Origin: Spirochaetes bacterium ADurb.Bin218
GTDB taxonomy: Bacteria > Spirochaetota > UBA4802 > UBA5550
Length of the DNA: 60,460 nucleotides
Direction: 5' to 3'
Assembly: GCA_002069965.1 (NCBI GenBank)
Contig: MWCI01000012.1
Span: 1 to 60,460 of the forward strand
Shown here: positions 635 through 7,636 of the stretch, piece after piece
Position numbering within the stretch: the stretch's first letter is position 1
How the letters are laid out: each line of letters opens with the position of its first letter
Notes under the pieces: model-generated
What the model was told of the DNA's origin: nothing
Seen by the model: only the letters and a program-made list of their open reading frames with translations
The model's database searches: none
Program-made: the position numbers and the translations under genes

Positions 635-1345
635 TTATTTCTCCTCCTCTTCTTTTTTGCCTTTTAGCATAAATCCGATAGGTCTTTCTTTAAATTCCTT
701 GGCAATTTCTTGAGCTAAGGCTGCTGTGTTCCTCAGGGACTGCAATATAGCAGGAATATCTTTTTGAGAATCTGCAAGAATCGAATTTACCCCTGCCACG
801 CTTGTTCTTAGATCAGAAAGTAATCCTAAGATATTTTCTCTACTGCCTAAGGAGAGGTCTTTCATTATAACAACGGTCTCTGTAACAGTGTTGAGAAGTT
901 TATGGACGTCAGTTAGAATCGCCTCAAGGTTTACGTATTCAAGGCCTTCTATTACATCTCCATCAAGTAAGGGAGCACCTTTTATGTCAGGGTTGCGTAT
1001 TTCTATTACAGTGTCACCAATAATATTTTGATTTAATATAAGGGCAGTGCAGTTTTCATATAGTTCAATGTCTTTTTTTATCCTCATGGTCGCAAGGAAG
1101 TGGAGAGATGGCTTATATACTGGTTTAAGCTCAACAACTCTACCAATGTCATACCCCTTGAGTTTTATAGCTGTTCCTTTTTTTATTGCAGATATGTTGT
1201 CAATTTTAAGATAAACATCAATAGTAGAACCAGATAAGGAATAACCTAATTTAAGTATGATAAAGAGAATAAGTATAATTACAGGTATTAAAATAAATAA
1301 ACCCACTCTGAATTCGTTTGGATTTTTAAGAGTAAATTTTTTCAT
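635..1345 (-). CDS. MlaD-type MCE-domain lipid-binding protein
   Basis: A 236-residue protein with one N-terminal membrane helix (about residues 14-34) followed by an MCE domain (about 38-115; contains IKKGTAIKLKGYDIGRV) and a helical C-terminal tail ending in a highly charged KGKKEEEEK. MCE proteins are the periplasmic substrate-binding part of Mla-type phospholipid transporters between inner and outer membrane. It is the last gene of a three-gene minus-strand operon (permease, ATPase, MCE). Its ATG overlaps the stop of the ATPase gene in an ATGA junction at 1342-1345, which indicates translational coupling. The family is clear; the direction of lipid transport is not shown by sequence. Confidence 0.88.
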   Translation of the reverse strand: MKKFTLKNPNEFRVGLFILIPVIILILFIILKLGYSLSGSTIDVYLKIDNISAIKKGTAIKLKGYDIGRVVELKPVYKPSLHFLATMRIKKDIELYENCTALILNQNIIGDTVIEIRNPDIKGAPLLDGDVIEGLEYVNLEAILTDVHKLLNTVTETVVIMKDLSLGSRENILGLLSDLRTSVAGVNSILADSQKDIPAILQSLRNTAALAQEIAKEFKERPIGFMLKGKKEEEEK

Positions 1346-2103
1346 AAAATCACCATAGGACCTTCAGGATTATTTGTCTTATATTGTATCAAATAAGGAT
1401 TCTGGGAATATAAAAATTCATCCTTTGATCCTTCAAATACAATTCTGCCATTAAAAAACATAATGAATCTATTGGCAATATCAATAAAATTTTCTGGCCT
1501 GTATGTAACTATTATGAGAGACTTATCTTTTCTTGCAATTCTCTTTTTTAAAATATCAAAGATTGTGATTATGTTGAGATAGCATTGATTTTCAAAGGCA
1601 TGCTCAAGATAGAGTAGATCTGGTTCATTGGCAATGGAGCGAGCAAAGGCTGTTTTAAGAATTTCTGATCTGCTCAGTTGAAATGGTCGCAGCTTTTTAC
1701 AGTGGTCTAAGTTTAAATCAAATATCAGCTTATTTACATAGTTTTTAATCTCTGCTCCCGAAAGGGATGAGTGATATTCCAGCGGCAGAGAGATGTTTTG
1801 TTCCACAGATAAATTGCTGATAAGCCCATAATCACCATGGAGATATCCTATTTCTTCTTTGTATTCCATCAAGCTAAAGTAATCCAGTTCCTTTATGCTA
1901 CTGCCTTTGTATAAAACATCTCCCTCAAAAGAAACATCCCCTCTGATTATAACATCAAATAGATGGGATATACCAGAATCCTCTGTCCCAAAAATTACCA
2001 TAGCTTCCCCTTTTTTTAGTGAAAAGGAGATATTGTTCAGTAAAGTGACTCCATCACGTGTATACTTTACGTTTTTTACCTCAAGAATTAATTCTTCCAA
2101 CAT
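1342..2103 (-). CDS. MlaF-like ABC ATPase with degenerate catalytic motifs
   Basis: It sits where the MlaF ATPase is expected and has ABC-ATPase architecture over 253 residues, but every catalytic motif is altered. The Walker A position reads GTEDSGISH at residues 39-47, with Ile45 replacing the ATP-binding Lys. The Q-loop region reads IGYLHGDYG without Gln. The signature is LSRSE (143-147) instead of LSGGQ. Walker B ends in LEHA (166-169) instead of LDEP, so Asp and the catalytic Glu are both lost. The H-loop is TYRP with Tyr201 for His. The frame is intact and tightly packed with its neighbours, so this is not simple decay. The ATG at 2103 was chosen because it follows the permease stop and has GAGG just upstream; an ATG at 2139 has no ribosome site. 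It probably binds ATP poorly or not at all. Confidence 0.8.
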   Translation of the reverse strand: MLEELILEVKNVKYTRDGVTLLNNISFSLKKGEAMVIFGTEDSGISHLFDVIIRGDVSFEGDVLYKGSSIKELDYFSLMEYKEEIGYLHGDYGLISNLSVEQNISLPLEYHSSLSGAEIKNYVNKLIFDLNLDHCKKLRPFQLSRSEILKTAFARSIANEPDLLYLEHAFENQCYLNIITIFDILKKRIARKDKSLIIVTYRPENFIDIANRFIMFFNGRIVFEGSKDEFLYSQNPYLIQYKTNNPEGPMVIL

Positions 2104-2107
2104 AGCC

Positions 2108-2899
2108 TCATATAAGATAAAATATGGTAGATATTGCAATATTAACTATAATAGCAACAAATAAAGTTCTGATTACAGCCTTAGATACAAAAATAGGAAT
2201 TTCAAATTTAGAGTTAGGCTTAAATCCATAGTAACAGCAAATTAATGGAACTGCTATGCCAAAGAGAATGCTTTTGGCTAAAGCTGCAGTGATATCCTTA
2301 AAAGTAAAAGAGTCAATAAGTGTCTGTCCAAAGGTATCCATTGGTATGTAAATTACTGTAAGAGCTATTAGATAACCGCCAATGAAGGCAACTACATCGA
2401 ATATTATAATAAGCCCCATAATGGAAAGTATTGATGCAATGATCCTCGGGAATACAATGAAGAGCTTTGTGTCAATACCCATAAGCTCCATGGCAAGTAT
2501 TTCCTTTGACCATTTTTGAACAGAAATTTCAGTGGCAATTGCAGAACCTGATCTGGCTATTACTATTAGAGTTGTTGCAAGAGGTCCCAACTCCCTTGCA
2601 ATTATTATAACAAGGAGATTGCCGAGAAATCCTTCAACTCCAAATTTTGGCAAAGATGTTAAGGCCTGGATTATTACAGTTGCCCCAAGTAAAAGGGCTA
2701 TTATTATAACTATGGAGAGAGCATCAACTCCAGTAAACCTTGTCTGATTTATTATGATTGTATAGAGAGATCGAAATCTTATATATCGTAAAGATTTAAA
2801 AGAGGTAACAATAGATTTTATAAACAAAGAAAAATCTTTAACCCCATTGCGGATGTCAATGGCCCAGCTGCCTATTTTTATTACTGTATTTTCTATCAT
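2108..2899 (-). CDS. MlaE family ABC transporter permease
   Basis: A 263-residue integral membrane protein with the MlaE/YrbE permease core. The family-typical stretches are visible: IIARELGPLATTLIVIARSG, then SAIATEISVQKWSKEILAME and LMGIDTKLFIVFPRIIASIL. About five hydrophobic segments follow an amphipathic N-terminus. It is the first gene of the minus-strand operon with the MlaF-like and MCE proteins, and should form the inner-membrane channel of a phospholipid transporter. The ribosome site before the ATG is weak (TTGAAACA). The 160 bases upstream hold no recognisable gene. Confidence 0.88.
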   Translation of the reverse strand: MIENTVIKIGSWAIDIRNGVKDFSLFIKSIVTSFKSLRYIRFRSLYTIIINQTRFTGVDALSIVIIIALLLGATVIIQALTSLPKFGVEGFLGNLLVIIIARELGPLATTLIVIARSGSAIATEISVQKWSKEILAMELMGIDTKLFIVFPRIIASILSIMGLIIIFDVVAFIGGYLIALTVIYIPMDTFGQTLIDSFTFKDITAALAKSILFGIAVPLICCYYGFKPNSKFEIPIFVSKAVIRTLFVAIIVNIAISTIFYLI

Positions 2900-3054: not shown

Positions 3055-3073
3055 GCAGGTTTACTCAACCTGC
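3055..3073 (-). terminator. Possible terminator hairpin of the protease-inhibitor operon
   Basis: A perfect 7-bp stem (GCAGGTT / AACCTGC) with a 5-base loop overlaps the end of the inhibitor gene. On the minus strand it is followed by TCTAAAATTCTCTTT, a broken U tract, so termination may be weak. Confidence 0.35.
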
Positions 3074-3423
3074 ACTAAAATTCTTGCTGTCTTTATATAG
3101 GATGGATTTTGTTTCCAGTGCTCACCATATTTAAAAACAATTATCCCCCCTGATTTATTGCTTTTAAATACAAATTCCTGAATATCAAAGCCTCCTGTCT
3201 TTTCACTTTCTTCTGTGCGTATAATTTCCTTAATCACAGCCATGTCTTGTGGAATTTCTGTTATCTTCCAACTGTAACCAGTTGAAAGTTGAGAGGCAAG
3301 TTTTACAGAAAATGTTTTTCCTGGCTTTGCTTTAATAACAGATTCCCCCTCAGAAAGAAAGATAGAAGGAGATGAGGCGCAAGAAAATATAAAAACACTT
3401 AGTAAAAGAAAAAATTTTTTCAT
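3061..3423 (-). CDS. Chagasin-type (I42) cysteine protease inhibitor lipoprotein
   Basis: A 120-residue lipoprotein: signal peptide with a lipobox-like IFSC (Cys15), then a single chagasin domain. The three inhibitor loops of family I42 can be placed: STGYSW (residues 47-52, matching the NPTTGYxW loop), GGF at 77-79 with its following strand, and YGEHW at 99-103 in place of RPW. Chagasins block papain-family cysteine proteases by inserting these loops into the active-site cleft. The gene lies only 11 bases downstream of a secreted papain-family protease on the same strand and has a good ribosome site (AAGGATGGTTAT-ATG). It is therefore most likely the cognate membrane-anchored inhibitor of its neighbour. 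Confidence 0.82.
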   Translation of the reverse strand: MKKFFLLLSVFIFSCASSPSIFLSEGESVIKAKPGKTFSVKLASQLSTGYSWKITEIPQDMAVIKEIIRTEESEKTGGFDIQEFVFKSNKSGGIIVFKYGEHWKQNPSYIKTARILVQVE

Positions 3424-3434
3424 ATAACCATCCT

Positions 3435-4673
3435 TTATTCAGAGACTACCACTACCCATGCTGCACCATATCCTATATTGTTACAGCCATATTCAACCCA
3501 TATATATCCTCCTTCACCCCATGCAGGCCCCCATGAATTTTTAACAAGGTAAGCCTTTTTGTTGTCGTCCCAGCCAACTATTGTAATTGCATGATTGACA
3601 TCATTTGGCCCTGAAACCTTTGCGTGTTCATCAAATATTCCGCTTTTGTAGGCCTGAAAGGCAGGAGTTACTTTCACTGTTGCTGCAATTGCTCCATATT
3701 TTACAATAGCCTCTTTCATTTCCTGGACAGAAGGGATTCCTGCATCTCTTCTGATGTAGCCCCATTTAATTATTTTGTAATTGGATTTTTTCTGAACAGC
3801 GCAAAATCCTTCTTTACCTTTGTATGGCATGTCGCTTTCAAGGAAAGCTCCATTTTGCATGAGATAGTCAAAGACTCCTCCATACCATCCTCCGTCACAG
3901 CTTCCGGCATCATTTCCATATTTATCTTTGGCGCAGTCCAGAAAGAATTGTTCTGATATATCCAGTATTTTATTATTTTTCATCTTGTAGTTTGCTTCAT
4001 AAACTGCAGCTGAGGTAAAGGCCCAGCAGCTTCCGCATATACCCTGATATTGGACCTTGGAAAGTAGCCCTGAGTCTCTCCAGTTAAATGCAACTAAATC
4101 TATGGATGGTGTTATTTCAGCAGGAATATTTCGATCCATCATTTCTTCTTTTTTCATTTCATCCTGACGTTTCTTTTCTTCCTGTTTACGCCTCTCCTCT
4201 TCCTGTCTTCTCATTTCTTCCTGTTTTTTTTGATTCTGCTCACGCTCTATTTCCTCTTCTCTCTTTTTGCGTTGCTCCTCCTGGCGTCTTAATTCTTCCT
4301 GTCGCTTTTTTTCTCTTTGCTGGCGTTCCAGTTCTTCTTTTTTGCGTCTCTCTTCCTCTTTCTTTTTCAGCTCATCTTCTGCTGGAGGCTTTGTTCCTGC
4401 TATTTGAGAGATTTGGTATTTCATCATCTCGTTAAGTTCAACAGTAAATTTGAGGTTTCGTTTCTTTATATCATCCACAACTGTTTTCATCATTGCTTTC
4501 ATCTCTTCCGGACTACGGAGAACAGCTTCTTTATCTTGTTTATATCGCTTTAGTATTTCACTTTTTGTGGTCCTGGCAGATAGCTGAAGATTTTCAGGGG
4601 ATGATGAGAGAAAGAGCAAAAGCAAAGATAAAGTCAAAATTAAAGAATAGAAAGAAGAGGTTTTTCTTAACAT
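3435..4673 (-). CDS. Secreted papain-family (C1A) cysteine protease with coiled-coil pro-region
   Basis: A 412-residue protein with a signal peptide (about 1-26), a helical pro-region, a long Glu/Lys/Arg/Gln-rich segment (about 100-178, likely a single alpha helix or coiled coil) and a complete C1A peptidase domain (about 190-412). Catalytic residues are intact: oxyanion Gln210 and Cys216 in QGICGSCWAF, His361 in NHAITIVGWDD, and Asn379 in VKNSWGPAWGEGGY. The segment CDGGW follows the usual disulfide pattern. The ribosome site AAGGAGCTCTCC precedes the ATG. It heads a two-gene operon with a chagasin-type inhibitor. Expected location is the periplasm, outer membrane or outside the cell. The substrate is unknown. 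The charged segment replaces the usual I29 propeptide and is unusual. Confidence 0.9.
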   Translation of the reverse strand: MLRKTSSFYSLILTLSLLLLFLSSSPENLQLSARTTKSEILKRYKQDKEAVLRSPEEMKAMMKTVVDDIKKRNLKFTVELNEMMKYQISQIAGTKPPAEDELKKKEEERRKKEELERQQREKKRQEELRRQEEQRKKREEEIEREQNQKKQEEMRRQEEERRKQEEKKRQDEMKKEEMMDRNIPAEITPSIDLVAFNWRDSGLLSKVQYQGICGSCWAFTSAAVYEANYKMKNNKILDISEQFFLDCAKDKYGNDAGSCDGGWYGGVFDYLMQNGAFLESDMPYKGKEGFCAVQKKSNYKIIKWGYIRRDAGIPSVQEMKEAIVKYGAIAATVKVTPAFQAYKSGIFDEHAKVSGPNDVNHAITIVGWDDNKKAYLVKNSWGPAWGEGGYIWVEYGCNNIGYGAAWVVVVSE

Positions 4674-4901: not shown

Positions 4902-6842
4902 ATGGGATTTAGTCTTAAGAGATTTTTTCATGTCAATATTGCAGGTTTTGCCAATTTAATTTTATGGTCGCTGGCTTTTACTTTTTATTTGCTTATAGAT
5001 AGATACAGTGGTTCTTTTGACATTGAGCTTTTTCTTCTTGGGGTATATATCTTTTTTTCAATAGTTTTTCTTAATGCGCTCTTCTTTTTTATATTCAAAG
5101 CTTTTTTTATCTACTTTAGATATAGAAGTGCAATGGCCTATTTACTGTCAAATTTAATAGTGACAGTGGTTTTTGTTATTAACAATATGTCTGTAGCTGT
5201 TTATGGAAAGCAGCTTGGCATGGAAGGGCTGGTTATGGCTCTAAGAGGCTGGCAGGGTGGAGAGATGGGCAATTTTACAGCTACAGTTTTACAGGTTTTT
5301 CTTGTTATTGCAATTTATCTATTTCTGTATTTTTTTACATATATGTTCTTGAATAGACTTTTTTCTGGCAGACCATTCTCTCATGCTTTTTTTGGACTTC
5401 TTGTTTGTGTGATTTCATTGGTTCTTGTTTTTGTGCATTTTAAATTAGTTGGAATGGCTGACTCTGACTGGAAGATGAACAGTATGAAGCATAAGATTCC
5501 ATGGCAATCTCTCACTGGTTTCCCAGATGATCTTGTTAGAGTAGATGAGGATGGGAAGAAGGGAACAGCTATCCCGCCACTTTTTTCTGAAAGATTAATT
5601 TTAAGTGAAAAGAAAGAAATTGAGCAACTGAAGAGAATGGGAATATATGGCAAAAAGATTCTTTCAGGTGAAATCTCAACACATCATCCATATAACATTC
5701 TTTTTATCAATGTAGAGGGATTGCGCAGGGATATGCTTAACCCAGAGAATATGCCTTTTTTATATAGATTTGCCTCAGACAAGGCTTTTATTTTAAAGAA
5801 ACACTACAGCACTGGGAACAATACCCCAGGAAGCCTCTATGGAATGCTCACAGGGCTTGCTCCTTATTATTTTGAGCCCTTAAGGCAGAATAAGTTGCCA
5901 AACATGGCCCTTGAGGTGCTCAAAAAGGCAGGATACAGGCAGTCTGTATATTACAATTCTCCAAGGAATTATGAGCATATTTATGAGGATATTCTGGTAA
6001 AAACTGAACATAAATTTGTTAGAGCAGCAGGAACATGGGAAGATGACTATGCTCCACGAGACAGATGGCTTTTTGAAAATTATATCCAGGAGTTGAAAAA
6101 GGAGAGTAACACTTCAAAGAGATTTGATTATATTCTTGTTAATGTTACTCACTTTAATTATTACTATCCTCCAGAATTCAAAAAATACACACCAGATTTT
6201 AGATCTGATTTTAAGATTATAAGTGGGCCTCAGAGTGGTTTTAGAAAAAACAAAGAAGAGCTTATGAACAGATATAAAAACTCAGTTTATTATGCAGATT
6301 ATCTCCTCAAAAATCTTCTTACAGAAATGGAGGCTATGGGAAGGCTTAAAAATACGATAATTGTTATTGCAGGTGATCACGGAGAGGAGTTCTGGGAGCA
6401 TGGAAGTTTTGGTCACACATGGGGGCTGAATGATATTCAGATTGGTCCAGCAGCTATAATCTATTATCCAAATATAAAAAACACTGATATAAAATATAAG
6501 TATACATCCCATCAGGATTTTTTACCAACTGTATTTGATATCATTGGTATAAATGTTGACTATAAGTATTTCACAACAGGAAAATCTTTGTTGAAATACT
6601 CTCCAGAAAAAGATTATGCCATATCCTCTCTGGGGATACTTGTTAGCTTTAAAAGAAATGGCTATGCAATTATTGGGAATGGATATAAGGTTTTATATAG
6701 AAATAATATGGACTTAAATAGCTCTCCCTATGCAATTTATGATGACAATGATCAGCCTATTGAGGAATTTAACAAAAATGCAGTGTCAGATCTACTCCTT
6801 AAGGCAATGAATGCTAAATCTCTGGAAGTGCCTATGTATTAA
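4902..6842 (+). CDS. Membrane-anchored sulfatase-superfamily hydrolase (PbgA/YejM- or LtaS-like)
   Basis: A 646-residue protein with about five N-terminal membrane helices (residues 12-180), a linker, and an extracytoplasmic alkaline-phosphatase/sulfatase domain (about 262-600). Metal and active-site elements are visible: Glu272 in INVEGLRRD, the candidate nucleophile Thr308 in NNTPGSLYG, Asp492-His493 in AGDHGEEFWEHG, and His505 in FGHTWG. The layout matches lipoteichoic acid synthase, phosphoethanolamine transferases and the PbgA/YejM group, which act on lipid headgroups or control LPS. No Gram-positive lipoteichoic acid is expected here, so a role with outer-membrane lipids or glycans is the better guess. 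The start has a strong AAAGGAG site. It converges with the M14 peptidase gene, overlapping by 4 bases. Confidence 0.8.
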   Translation: MGFSLKRFFHVNIAGFANLILWSLAFTFYLLIDRYSGSFDIELFLLGVYIFFSIVFLNALFFFIFKAFFIYFRYRSAMAYLLSNLIVTVVFVINNMSVAVYGKQLGMEGLVMALRGWQGGEMGNFTATVLQVFLVIAIYLFLYFFTYMFLNRLFSGRPFSHAFFGLLVCVISLVLVFVHFKLVGMADSDWKMNSMKHKIPWQSLTGFPDDLVRVDEDGKKGTAIPPLFSERLILSEKKEIEQLKRMGIYGKKILSGEISTHHPYNILFINVEGLRRDMLNPENMPFLYRFASDKAFILKKHYSTGNNTPGSLYGMLTGLAPYYFEPLRQNKLPNMALEVLKKAGYRQSVYYNSPRNYEHIYEDILVKTEHKFVRAAGTWEDDYAPRDRWLFENYIQELKKESNTSKRFDYILVNVTHFNYYYPPEFKKYTPDFRSDFKIISGPQSGFRKNKEELMNRYKNSVYYADYLLKNLLTEMEAMGRLKNTIIVIAGDHGEEFWEHGSFGHTWGLNDIQIGPAAIIYYPNIKNTDIKYKYTSHQDFLPTVFDIIGINVDYKYFTTGKSLLKYSPEKDYAISSLGILVSFKRNGYAIIGNGYKVLYRNNMDLNSSPYAIYDDNDQPIEEFNKNAVSDLLLKAMNAKSLEVPMY

Positions 6843-7636
6843 TTGTAATCGTAATTGATGGCCTCAAGGAGAGATAGAATTACTTTATTGTAATCTGGCT
6901 CTCTGTCTATTCTTCCCAGTTCATAGGTAATGCCTATTATTGAGTATTCCTGATCGGATTTGAAGCTTCCAAGGGAACCAGGTGTTTTATATCCTATGTC
7001 AAATGATATAGAAAATCCAGAGATATCTGACATTTTTTCAATTAAGTCATTGGGTGCTTTTGAATCAGGGTAAAGAGCAGCAAAGGGTTGATGGAGCTGA
7101 ATGATCATTACAGGCTGATACTTATCCATAATTTCTATGGCAACTACAGTCTCTGGCTCTGATGCAGGCAAAGGTCCTGGATTATTGTAATGTTTTGTGT
7201 AGTCAAATTCCCATGTGGAGGAGGGAAAATTTCTGTTGAGATCAATCTTATGGCCATTGGTTCTTCTGCCAGCTCTGAGTCCGTCAGGGTTAAGGCATGG
7301 CACAATGATAACTCTGTTTTTTATTGAGGCTGAATTTTTTTCCAGATACTTTGCAAGATAAATTGCGGAGGTTACGCTTGCAGGCTCATCACCATGAATG
7401 CCCCCAATTATCAGTATATTTTTTCCTCTGTTGCCATATTCCTTGAGCAGAATTTTATTTTTCCAGTTGGAGTAACCAGCGATTGTCCAGCTTTTGTCCT
7501 TTTCTAAATTTTTAAGCATAGATATGGCTTTTTTTATAATTAAATCATGTCTTTTATAAGATAGGGAAGATGCATTTTTATAATTTTCTATTATAATTAG
7601 AAAGCAGCATAGAATTATAAGCAAAAATTTTTTCAT
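6839..7636 (-). CDS. Secreted M14-family zinc carboxypeptidase (MpaA-like)
   Basis: A 265-residue protein with an N-terminal signal or anchor segment (about 3-17) and an M14 domain. Zinc ligands His81 and Glu84 (GGIHGDEPAS) and His182 (IQLHQP), the substrate-binding NRNFP at 134-138, and the catalytic Glu239 (GITYELGR) are all present. The family includes murein tripeptide amidase MpaA, which cuts diaminopimelate-containing peptides, so a cell-wall or periplasmic peptide substrate is likely. The stop overlaps the end of the sulfatase gene on the other strand. The ribosome site TGTGAG is acceptable. Confidence 0.83.
   Translation of the reverse strand: MKKFLLIILCCFLIIIENYKNASSLSYKRHDLIIKKAISMLKNLEKDKSWTIAGYSNWKNKILLKEYGNRGKNILIIGGIHGDEPASVTSAIYLAKYLEKNSASIKNRVIIVPCLNPDGLRAGRRTNGHKIDLNRNFPSSTWEFDYTKHYNNPGPLPASEPETVVAIEIMDKYQPVMIIQLHQPFAALYPDSKAPNDLIEKMSDISGFSISFDIGYKTPGSLGSFKSDQEYSIIGITYELGRIDREPDYNKVILSLLEAINYDYN

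What the first reader, a model, noticed from the sequence alone, without database searches (positions are those of the whole stretch)
3061..4673. Papain-family protease paired with a chagasin-type inhibitor lipoprotein
A C1A cysteine protease with an intact Cys216-His361-Asn379 triad is followed after 11 bases by a lipoprotein carrying a single chagasin (I42) domain with recognisable inhibitor loops. Both gene families are known, but an enzyme-inhibitor operon with a membrane-bound inhibitor suggests a self-protection module: the protease is exported and the lipoprotein guards the envelope. The protease also has a long Glu/Lys/Arg/Gln-rich segment (about residues 100-178) in place of a normal propeptide, so the inhibitor may replace propeptide control.
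Basis: partly seen in the sequence, partly recalled or inferred. Interest (0 to 1): 0.65.

Follow-up and report, generated by a model that had tools for sequence, protein, structure and literature searches.

The report
Papain-like protease with membrane-anchored inhibitor
An uncultured spirochaete-phylum bacterium, like nearly all of its relatives that carry these genes, makes an exported papain-type protease directly followed by a lipid-anchored chagasin-type inhibitor, most likely a self-protection pair that would give bacterial chagasins a testable job.

Summary
The window holds a C1A papain-family protease (4673..3435, minus strand, 412 aa, Pfam E 2.7e-47, intact Q210/C216/H361/N379). An I42/chagasin lipoprotein follows 11 bases later (3423..3061, Pfam E 6.4e-12); its predicted fold matches chagasin and amoebiasin structures. 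They are the only C1 and the only I42 hit in this genome.

In the order (46 genomes held), 28 of the 29 I42 genes whose upstream side is present lie directly downstream of a C1 gene, same strand, mostly 9-35 bases apart. All 28 have a lipoprotein-like signal peptide. The exception is a second copy. Linkage also occurs in other families, twice with reversed gene order and a different C1 type.

The Glu/Lys/Arg/Gln segment does not replace a propeptide. It is a variable spacer, here with single-alpha-helix salt-bridge spacing. It follows a conserved ~65-residue pro-region that related proteases without I42 also carry. Homology of that region to I29 was not shown.

Best reading: an exported protease with an envelope-tethered cognate inhibitor, working like staphopain/staphostatin and, closest, Bacteroides Bfp/Bfi. 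Inhibition was not tested. No bacterial C1A-I42 operon turned up in the open-access library searched.

The parts
3435..4673 (-). C1A (papain-family) protease precursor, 412 aa, with Q210, C216, H361, N379
   Evidence: PF00112 E 2.7e-47; catalytic residues invariant in 29 of 29 relatives; only C1 hit in the genome
4575..4673 (-). Sec signal peptide of the protease (about residues 1-33), no lipobox Cys
   Evidence: hydrophobic N-terminus read from the sequence; relatives end in AxA-Q-like cleavage sites; no predictor run
4374..4571 (-). conserved pro-region (residues ~35-100), probable propeptide
   Evidence: alignment A1; HMM finds it also in C1 relatives without I42 next door; no Pfam or PDB match
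4140..4376 (-). Glu/Lys/Arg/Gln-rich spacer (residues ~100-178), probable single alpha-helix
   Evidence: E-K/R pairs enriched at i+3 and i+4, like charges avoided there; length and sequence vary in relatives
3477..4088 (-). C1A catalytic domain (residues 196-399)
3424..3434 (-). 11-base gap AGGATGGTTAT with ribosome-binding-like AGGA
3061..3423 (-). I42 (chagasin-family) inhibitor lipoprotein, 120 aa
   Evidence: PF09394 E 6.4e-12; fold matches chagasin/ICP structures; only I42 hit in the genome
3379..3423 (-). lipoprotein signal peptide with lipobox-like FIFSC, Cys15
   Evidence: motif present in all 28 pairs of the order; judged by motif only

Best explanation
This is a two-gene unit that makes a secreted papain-like protease and its cognate inhibitor. 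The protease is made as a pre-pro-enzyme: signal peptide, helical pro-region, charged spacer, C1A catalytic domain. It is exported by Sec and possibly moved on through the genome's type II secretion system. The chagasin-type inhibitor is translated from the same message, lipidated at Cys15 and anchored in the envelope. There it would block active protease before it damages the cell's own envelope proteins, by putting its L2/L4/L6 loops into the active-site cleft as chagasin does. The pro-region would give ordinary zymogen control independent of the inhibitor, and the charged segment is a spacer. Shown here: domains, intact active site, inhibitor fold and loop positions, signal and lipobox-like sequences, conserved pairing, conserved pro-region, presence of a T2SS gene cluster. 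Inferred: co-transcription, lipidation and which membrane, inhibition, pro-region function, secretion route, substrate.
For: Only C1 and only I42 hit in the genome, adjacent. 28 of 29 testable I42 genes in the order directly downstream of C1, same strand, short gaps. Co-occurrence across 46 genomes Fisher p 4e-9 (not corrected for phylogeny). Linkage also in other families, twice with reversed gene order and another C1 type. Lipobox-like signal in all 28 pairs. Terminator-like hairpins just after the inhibitor in several relatives. Active-site residues invariant and L2 TG/W, L4 G, L6 aromatic kept. Chagasin fold. Chagasins are known inhibitors of C1A enzymes (PMC2607524, PMC7863939). T2SS cluster in the genome. 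Protein pair divergence correlates, r 0.72, as co-inheritance alone would also give.
Against: No inhibition, binding or complex model. Conserved chagasin residues are partly replaced in the window (NPTTG to QLSTG, RPW to EHW), so affinity is unknown. One relative (G006) keeps this C1 type without I42, and C1s with the same pro-region in other families have none next door, so the inhibitor is not obligatory. The G221 partner seems secreted without a lipobox. No terminator-like site was found after the window's own inhibitor. Export past the outer membrane is not shown.
Confidence: 0.7

Rival explanations
1. Tether rather than guard: the lipoprotein holds the protease at the envelope as an inhibited, releasable reservoir or helps it fold, and release is the regulated step.
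For: Same genetic evidence as the main model: obligate pairing with a lipid-anchored binder; a long spacer could separate domain and anchor point.
Against: Nothing in the sequence points to release; simple protection needs fewer assumptions.
Confidence: 0.15
2. The lipoprotein is aimed at foreign C1 proteases (predators, protists, neighbours) and lies next to the protease by descent only.
For: Many Spirochaetota carry an unlinked I42 with no C1 seen nearby; Pseudomonas Cip1 inhibits plant proteases (PMC5014320).
Against: 28 of 29 adjacency and strong co-occurrence in the order; linkage arose also in other families with other gene order.
Confidence: 0.07
3. Toxin-immunity pair for competition: the protease is an antibacterial effector and the lipoprotein its immunity protein.
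For: Enzyme followed by an envelope-located neutraliser is the usual layout of such pairs (own knowledge).
Against: The pair is kept at the same place in the gene order across an order and looks vertically inherited; no polymorphic toxin modules or delivery domains in the protease.
Confidence: 0.05
4. One reading: no propeptide, the charged segment takes its place and the inhibitor supplies all control.
For: Pfam finds no I29 in the N-terminal region, and profile comparison with I29 is not significant (probability 0.5%, P 0.11).
Against: A conserved pro-region precedes the spacer and is present in C1 proteins without I42 next door; the spacer varies from charged to Pro/Lys-rich.
Confidence: 0.03

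Closest known systems
Bacteroides fragilis C10 proteases Bfp1/Bfp4 with Bfi inhibitors (PMC2873492)
   Same: Exported cysteine protease with adjacent inhibitor genes within 35 bp, co-transcribed; Bfi1B and Bfi4 are predicted lipoproteins; a protective role was proposed.
   Different: Protease family C10 instead of C1A; inhibitors are staphostatin-like instead of I42; there the proteases are predicted lipoproteins too.
Staphopain/staphostatin (C47/I57) and SpeB/Spi
   Same: Secreted papain-fold protease with a juxtaposed specific inhibitor gene (PMC2873492, PMC7863939).
   Different: Other protease and inhibitor families; staphostatin binds substrate-like, and those inhibitors are not lipoproteins (own knowledge).
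Chagasin/ICP family I42: T. cruzi chagasin, Entamoeba EhICP2, PaICP, P. syringae Cip1
   Same: Same fold and loop positions; inhibitors of C1A proteases.
   Different: Protozoan chagasins have no signal peptide and Pseudomonas ones mostly lack a C1A partner in the genome (PMC5014320); this one is lipobox-bearing and encoded next to its likely target, with QL for NP in L2 and EH for RP in L6.
Papain-family zymogens with I29 propeptide (cathepsins L, S, H, papain)
   Same: Catalytic domain and active site; an N-terminal helical pro-region.
   Different: The pro-region is not recognisable as I29, and a ~70-135 residue charged or Pro/Lys-rich spacer separates it from the catalytic domain.

Membership tests
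Peptidase family C1A (papain) | C1 catalytic domain above the curated Pfam score | tested here: met
   162.1 bits against 20.7
Peptidase family C1A (papain) | Gln, Cys, His, Asn active-site residues | tested here: met
   Q210, C216, H361, N379, invariant in 29 of 29
Peptidase family C1A (papain) | Proteolytic activity | not testable with these tools
   needs an assay
I29 propeptide | I29 domain or ERFNIN-type propeptide | tested here: inconclusive
   no Pfam I29, no PDB match, hhalign probability 0.5%, P 0.11
I42 chagasin family | I42 domain above the curated score and chagasin fold | tested here: met
   46 bits against 27.2; profile E 1e-11 to 1e-15 to solved members; AF2 fold matches only I42/ICP at E up to 0.001
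I42 chagasin family | NPTTG, GxGG and RPW loop motifs | tested here: inconclusive
   window has QLSTGYSW, TGGFD and EHW: TG/W, G and W kept, NP and RP replaced
I42 chagasin family | Inhibition of C1A proteases | not testable with these tools
   needs an assay
Protease-inhibitor operons (staphopain/staphostatin, Bfp/Bfi kind) | Adjacent, same-strand genes conserved in relatives | tested here: met
   28 of 29 testable cases in the order
Protease-inhibitor operons (staphopain/staphostatin, Bfp/Bfi kind) | Co-transcription and cognate inhibition | not testable with these tools
   short gaps and terminator-like hairpins in some relatives only suggest it
Bacterial lipoprotein (inhibitor) | Signal peptide with lipobox Cys | tested here: met
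   FIFSC at residues 11-15, lipobox-like motif in all 28 pairs of the order; by motif only

The most novel reading that the evidence does not exclude
A so far undescribed bacterial protease-control system: C1A papain proteases with a new propeptide type and a helical spacer, each guarded by a lipid-anchored chagasin with its own loop signature. It arose more than once in Spirochaetota and would show that chagasins in bacteria primarily restrain the cell's own proteases, possibly the role from which the protozoan inhibitors came.
Probability: 0.3. Interest if true: 0.62.

Novelty: new variant of a known kind. Interest (0 to 1): 0.47.

Why it matters
The role of bacterial chagasins has been called not yet elucidated (PMC5014320), because the best-studied ones sit in Pseudomonas genomes that mostly lack a C1A target. 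Here is a whole order in which the chagasin almost always comes with, and lies next to, a C1A protease. That names a cognate target and makes the self-versus-foreign question directly testable with two small proteins. It also offers a conserved pro-region, not recognised by Pfam, that may be a new kind of propeptide.

Tried and rejected
AF2 of the exported protease with four sequences failed (pLDDT 52, pTM 0.34) and was not interpreted, except as weak support for helices in the pro-region and spacer. A fused protease-inhibitor chain read through the stop of L003 was aligned but not folded: the tool returns no coordinates, so an interface could not be read, and the inhibitor rows misaligned in the deeper alignment; the second fold job went to the inhibitor alone. 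The mirror-tree correlation is reported but not relied on. Phage-like contigs: 48 papain-type genes, none with an I42-like motif nearby, and no I42 relative found there. Literature searches for a bacterial C1A-chagasin operon found none; Rigden 2002, cited for bacterial chagasins, is not held.

Full report
What is there. The protease ORF runs 4673..3435 on the minus strand (412 aa) and the inhibitor ORF 3423..3061 (120 aa), separated by AGGATGGTTAT. Pfam assigns Peptidase_C1 (E 2.7e-47) and Inhibitor_I42 (E 6.4e-12). The nearest solved proteases are procathepsin H and cathepsin S at E ~1e-35. A single-sequence search with the inhibitor finds solved chagasins only marginally, but a ten-member profile finds amoebiasin-2 (1.3e-15), PaICP, T. 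brucei ICP and chagasin (about 1e-11 to 1e-12). The AF2 model of the window's inhibitor domain is good for three sequences (pLDDT 86, pTM 0.78, eight strands), and its 11 PDB matches with E up to 0.001 are all I42/ICP-family chains.

Conservation. The genome (3.03 Mb, 160 contigs) has one C1 and one I42 hit, these two. A search of the order (46 genomes) gives 30 I42 places in 29 genomes. Comparing coordinates with the C1 hits, 28 of 30 lie directly downstream of a C1 gene on the same strand. Of the other two, G038 ends at the contig edge on the side where C1 would be, and G004:C16 is a second, unlinked copy in a genome that also has a pair. I42 is present in 28 of 30 C1-positive genomes and 1 of 16 C1-negative ones (Fisher p 4e-9; not corrected for phylogeny). 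Gaps are -28 to 113 bases, mostly 9-35. The C1-positive genomes without I42 are G006, where a chemotaxis gene lies convergently downstream, and G043, where the contig ends.

Other families. In an even sample of 393 genomes of the phylum, pairs with the same gene order (C1 then I42) occur in G089, G155 and G221, and pairs with I42 first and a ~750-residue C1 of different architecture in G054 and G066. Linkage therefore appears to have arisen more than once. Many genomes of other families carry I42 without a C1 seen nearby; those whose loop could be read have N at the first L2 position (mostly NPTTG) and an RPW/RSW-type L6, whereas copies linked to this C1 type have Q, K or R there. This may reflect lineage rather than function.

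Lipoprotein and export. All 28 paired I42 proteins of the order start with a hydrophobic signal and a lipobox-like Cys. This was judged by motif only. For G014, G022 and G039 the script picked a different Cys from the one that fits best by eye (FITC, WMSC, FSAC), and G020 has CAGC. In the window the residue after the Cys is Ala, and by eye none of the pairs has Asp there, which by the E. coli rule would not mean inner-membrane retention; that rule is not reliable for spirochaetes. The protease has a Sec-like signal and no lipobox. The genome holds a type II secretion cluster (GspC, D, E, F, G, J, K, M), so secretion across the outer membrane is possible but not shown.

Residues 100-178 are E/K/R/Q-rich with E/D-K/R pairs at i+3 (21 vs 11.1 expected) and i+4 (17 vs 10.9), and like charges avoided at those spacings (6 and 6 vs ~21): the signature of a single alpha-helix. 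In relatives the spacer ranges from ~70 to 135 residues and can be Pro/Lys-rich (G026), so it is a spacer and not a conserved inhibitory element. Before it lies a conserved region (residues ~35-100; pattern IKxRNxKFxVELNEMxKYxIxxITG). An HMM of it finds the region in C1 proteins outside the training set at E 1e-11 to 1e-17, including G140, G148, G176, G179, G205 and G107, in which no I42 was seen next door (the G179 contig ends about 0.9 kb downstream). It also finds it at ~3e-8 in two large paralogues of the window's genus that have no I42 hit nearby. It is therefore a trait of the protease clade and does not depend on the inhibitor. The resemblance to the end of I29 propeptides (NLKFTVELNE vs NNSYWLGLNV) is suggestive only: hhalign probability 0.5%, P 0.11.

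Mechanism. The best reading is an exported, self-dangerous C1A protease whose envelope-anchored chagasin protects the producer. The loops by which chagasin contacts its target are kept in position: TG and Trp of L2, Gly of L4, the aromatic of L6. Mutations of T31 in L2 or W93 in L6 change chagasin affinity depending on the enzyme (PMC2607524), so the replaced residues here (NP to QL, RP to EH) mean that affinity must be measured. The co-divergence of the two proteins (r 0.72) is what vertical co-inheritance alone would give.

Place among known systems. [quoted passage not shown] Bacterial chagasins are best known from Pseudomonas, where targets appear foreign and the role was called not yet elucidated (PMC5014320); a role against a bacterium's own proteases had been proposed in general terms (PMC2784779). 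A C1A-chagasin operon with a lipoprotein inhibitor was not found in the open-access library, which lacks most subscription papers. Hence a new variant of a known kind.

Limits. No assay, no complex model and no transcript evidence. The comparison genomes are mostly draft assemblies in many contigs. The survey covers Spirochaetota only.

Noticed in passing
L064-L087: Other Spirochaetota families carry I42 genes with classical NPTTG/RPW-type loops and no C1 motif within 1.5 kb; their targets are unknown.
   Followed up: partly
L089-L136: 48 phage-like contigs of IMG/VR encode exported papain-family proteases, several with lipoprotein-like signals, none with an I42-like motif nearby.
   Followed up: partly
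L140 and L141 (G140:C83, G148:C54): C1 genes with the same pro-region are followed not by I42 but by a FecR-like repeat/anchor-type exported protein, judged by eye from the sequence.
   Followed up: no
L147 (G066:C105) and L014/L063 (G054:C12): Reversed pairs: I42 first, then a ~750-residue C1 protein of different architecture without the pro-region.
   Followed up: partly
window 635-2899 (minus): MlaE permease, ABC ATPase and MCE/MlaD genes (lipid transport) lie downstream of the inhibitor on the same strand after a ~160-base gap.
   Followed up: no
window 4902-6842 (plus): Divergent neighbour: membrane-bound sulfatase-family protein (YejM/PbgA- and phosphoethanolamine-transferase-like), followed by an MpaA-like carboxypeptidase at 6839-7636.
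   Followed up: no
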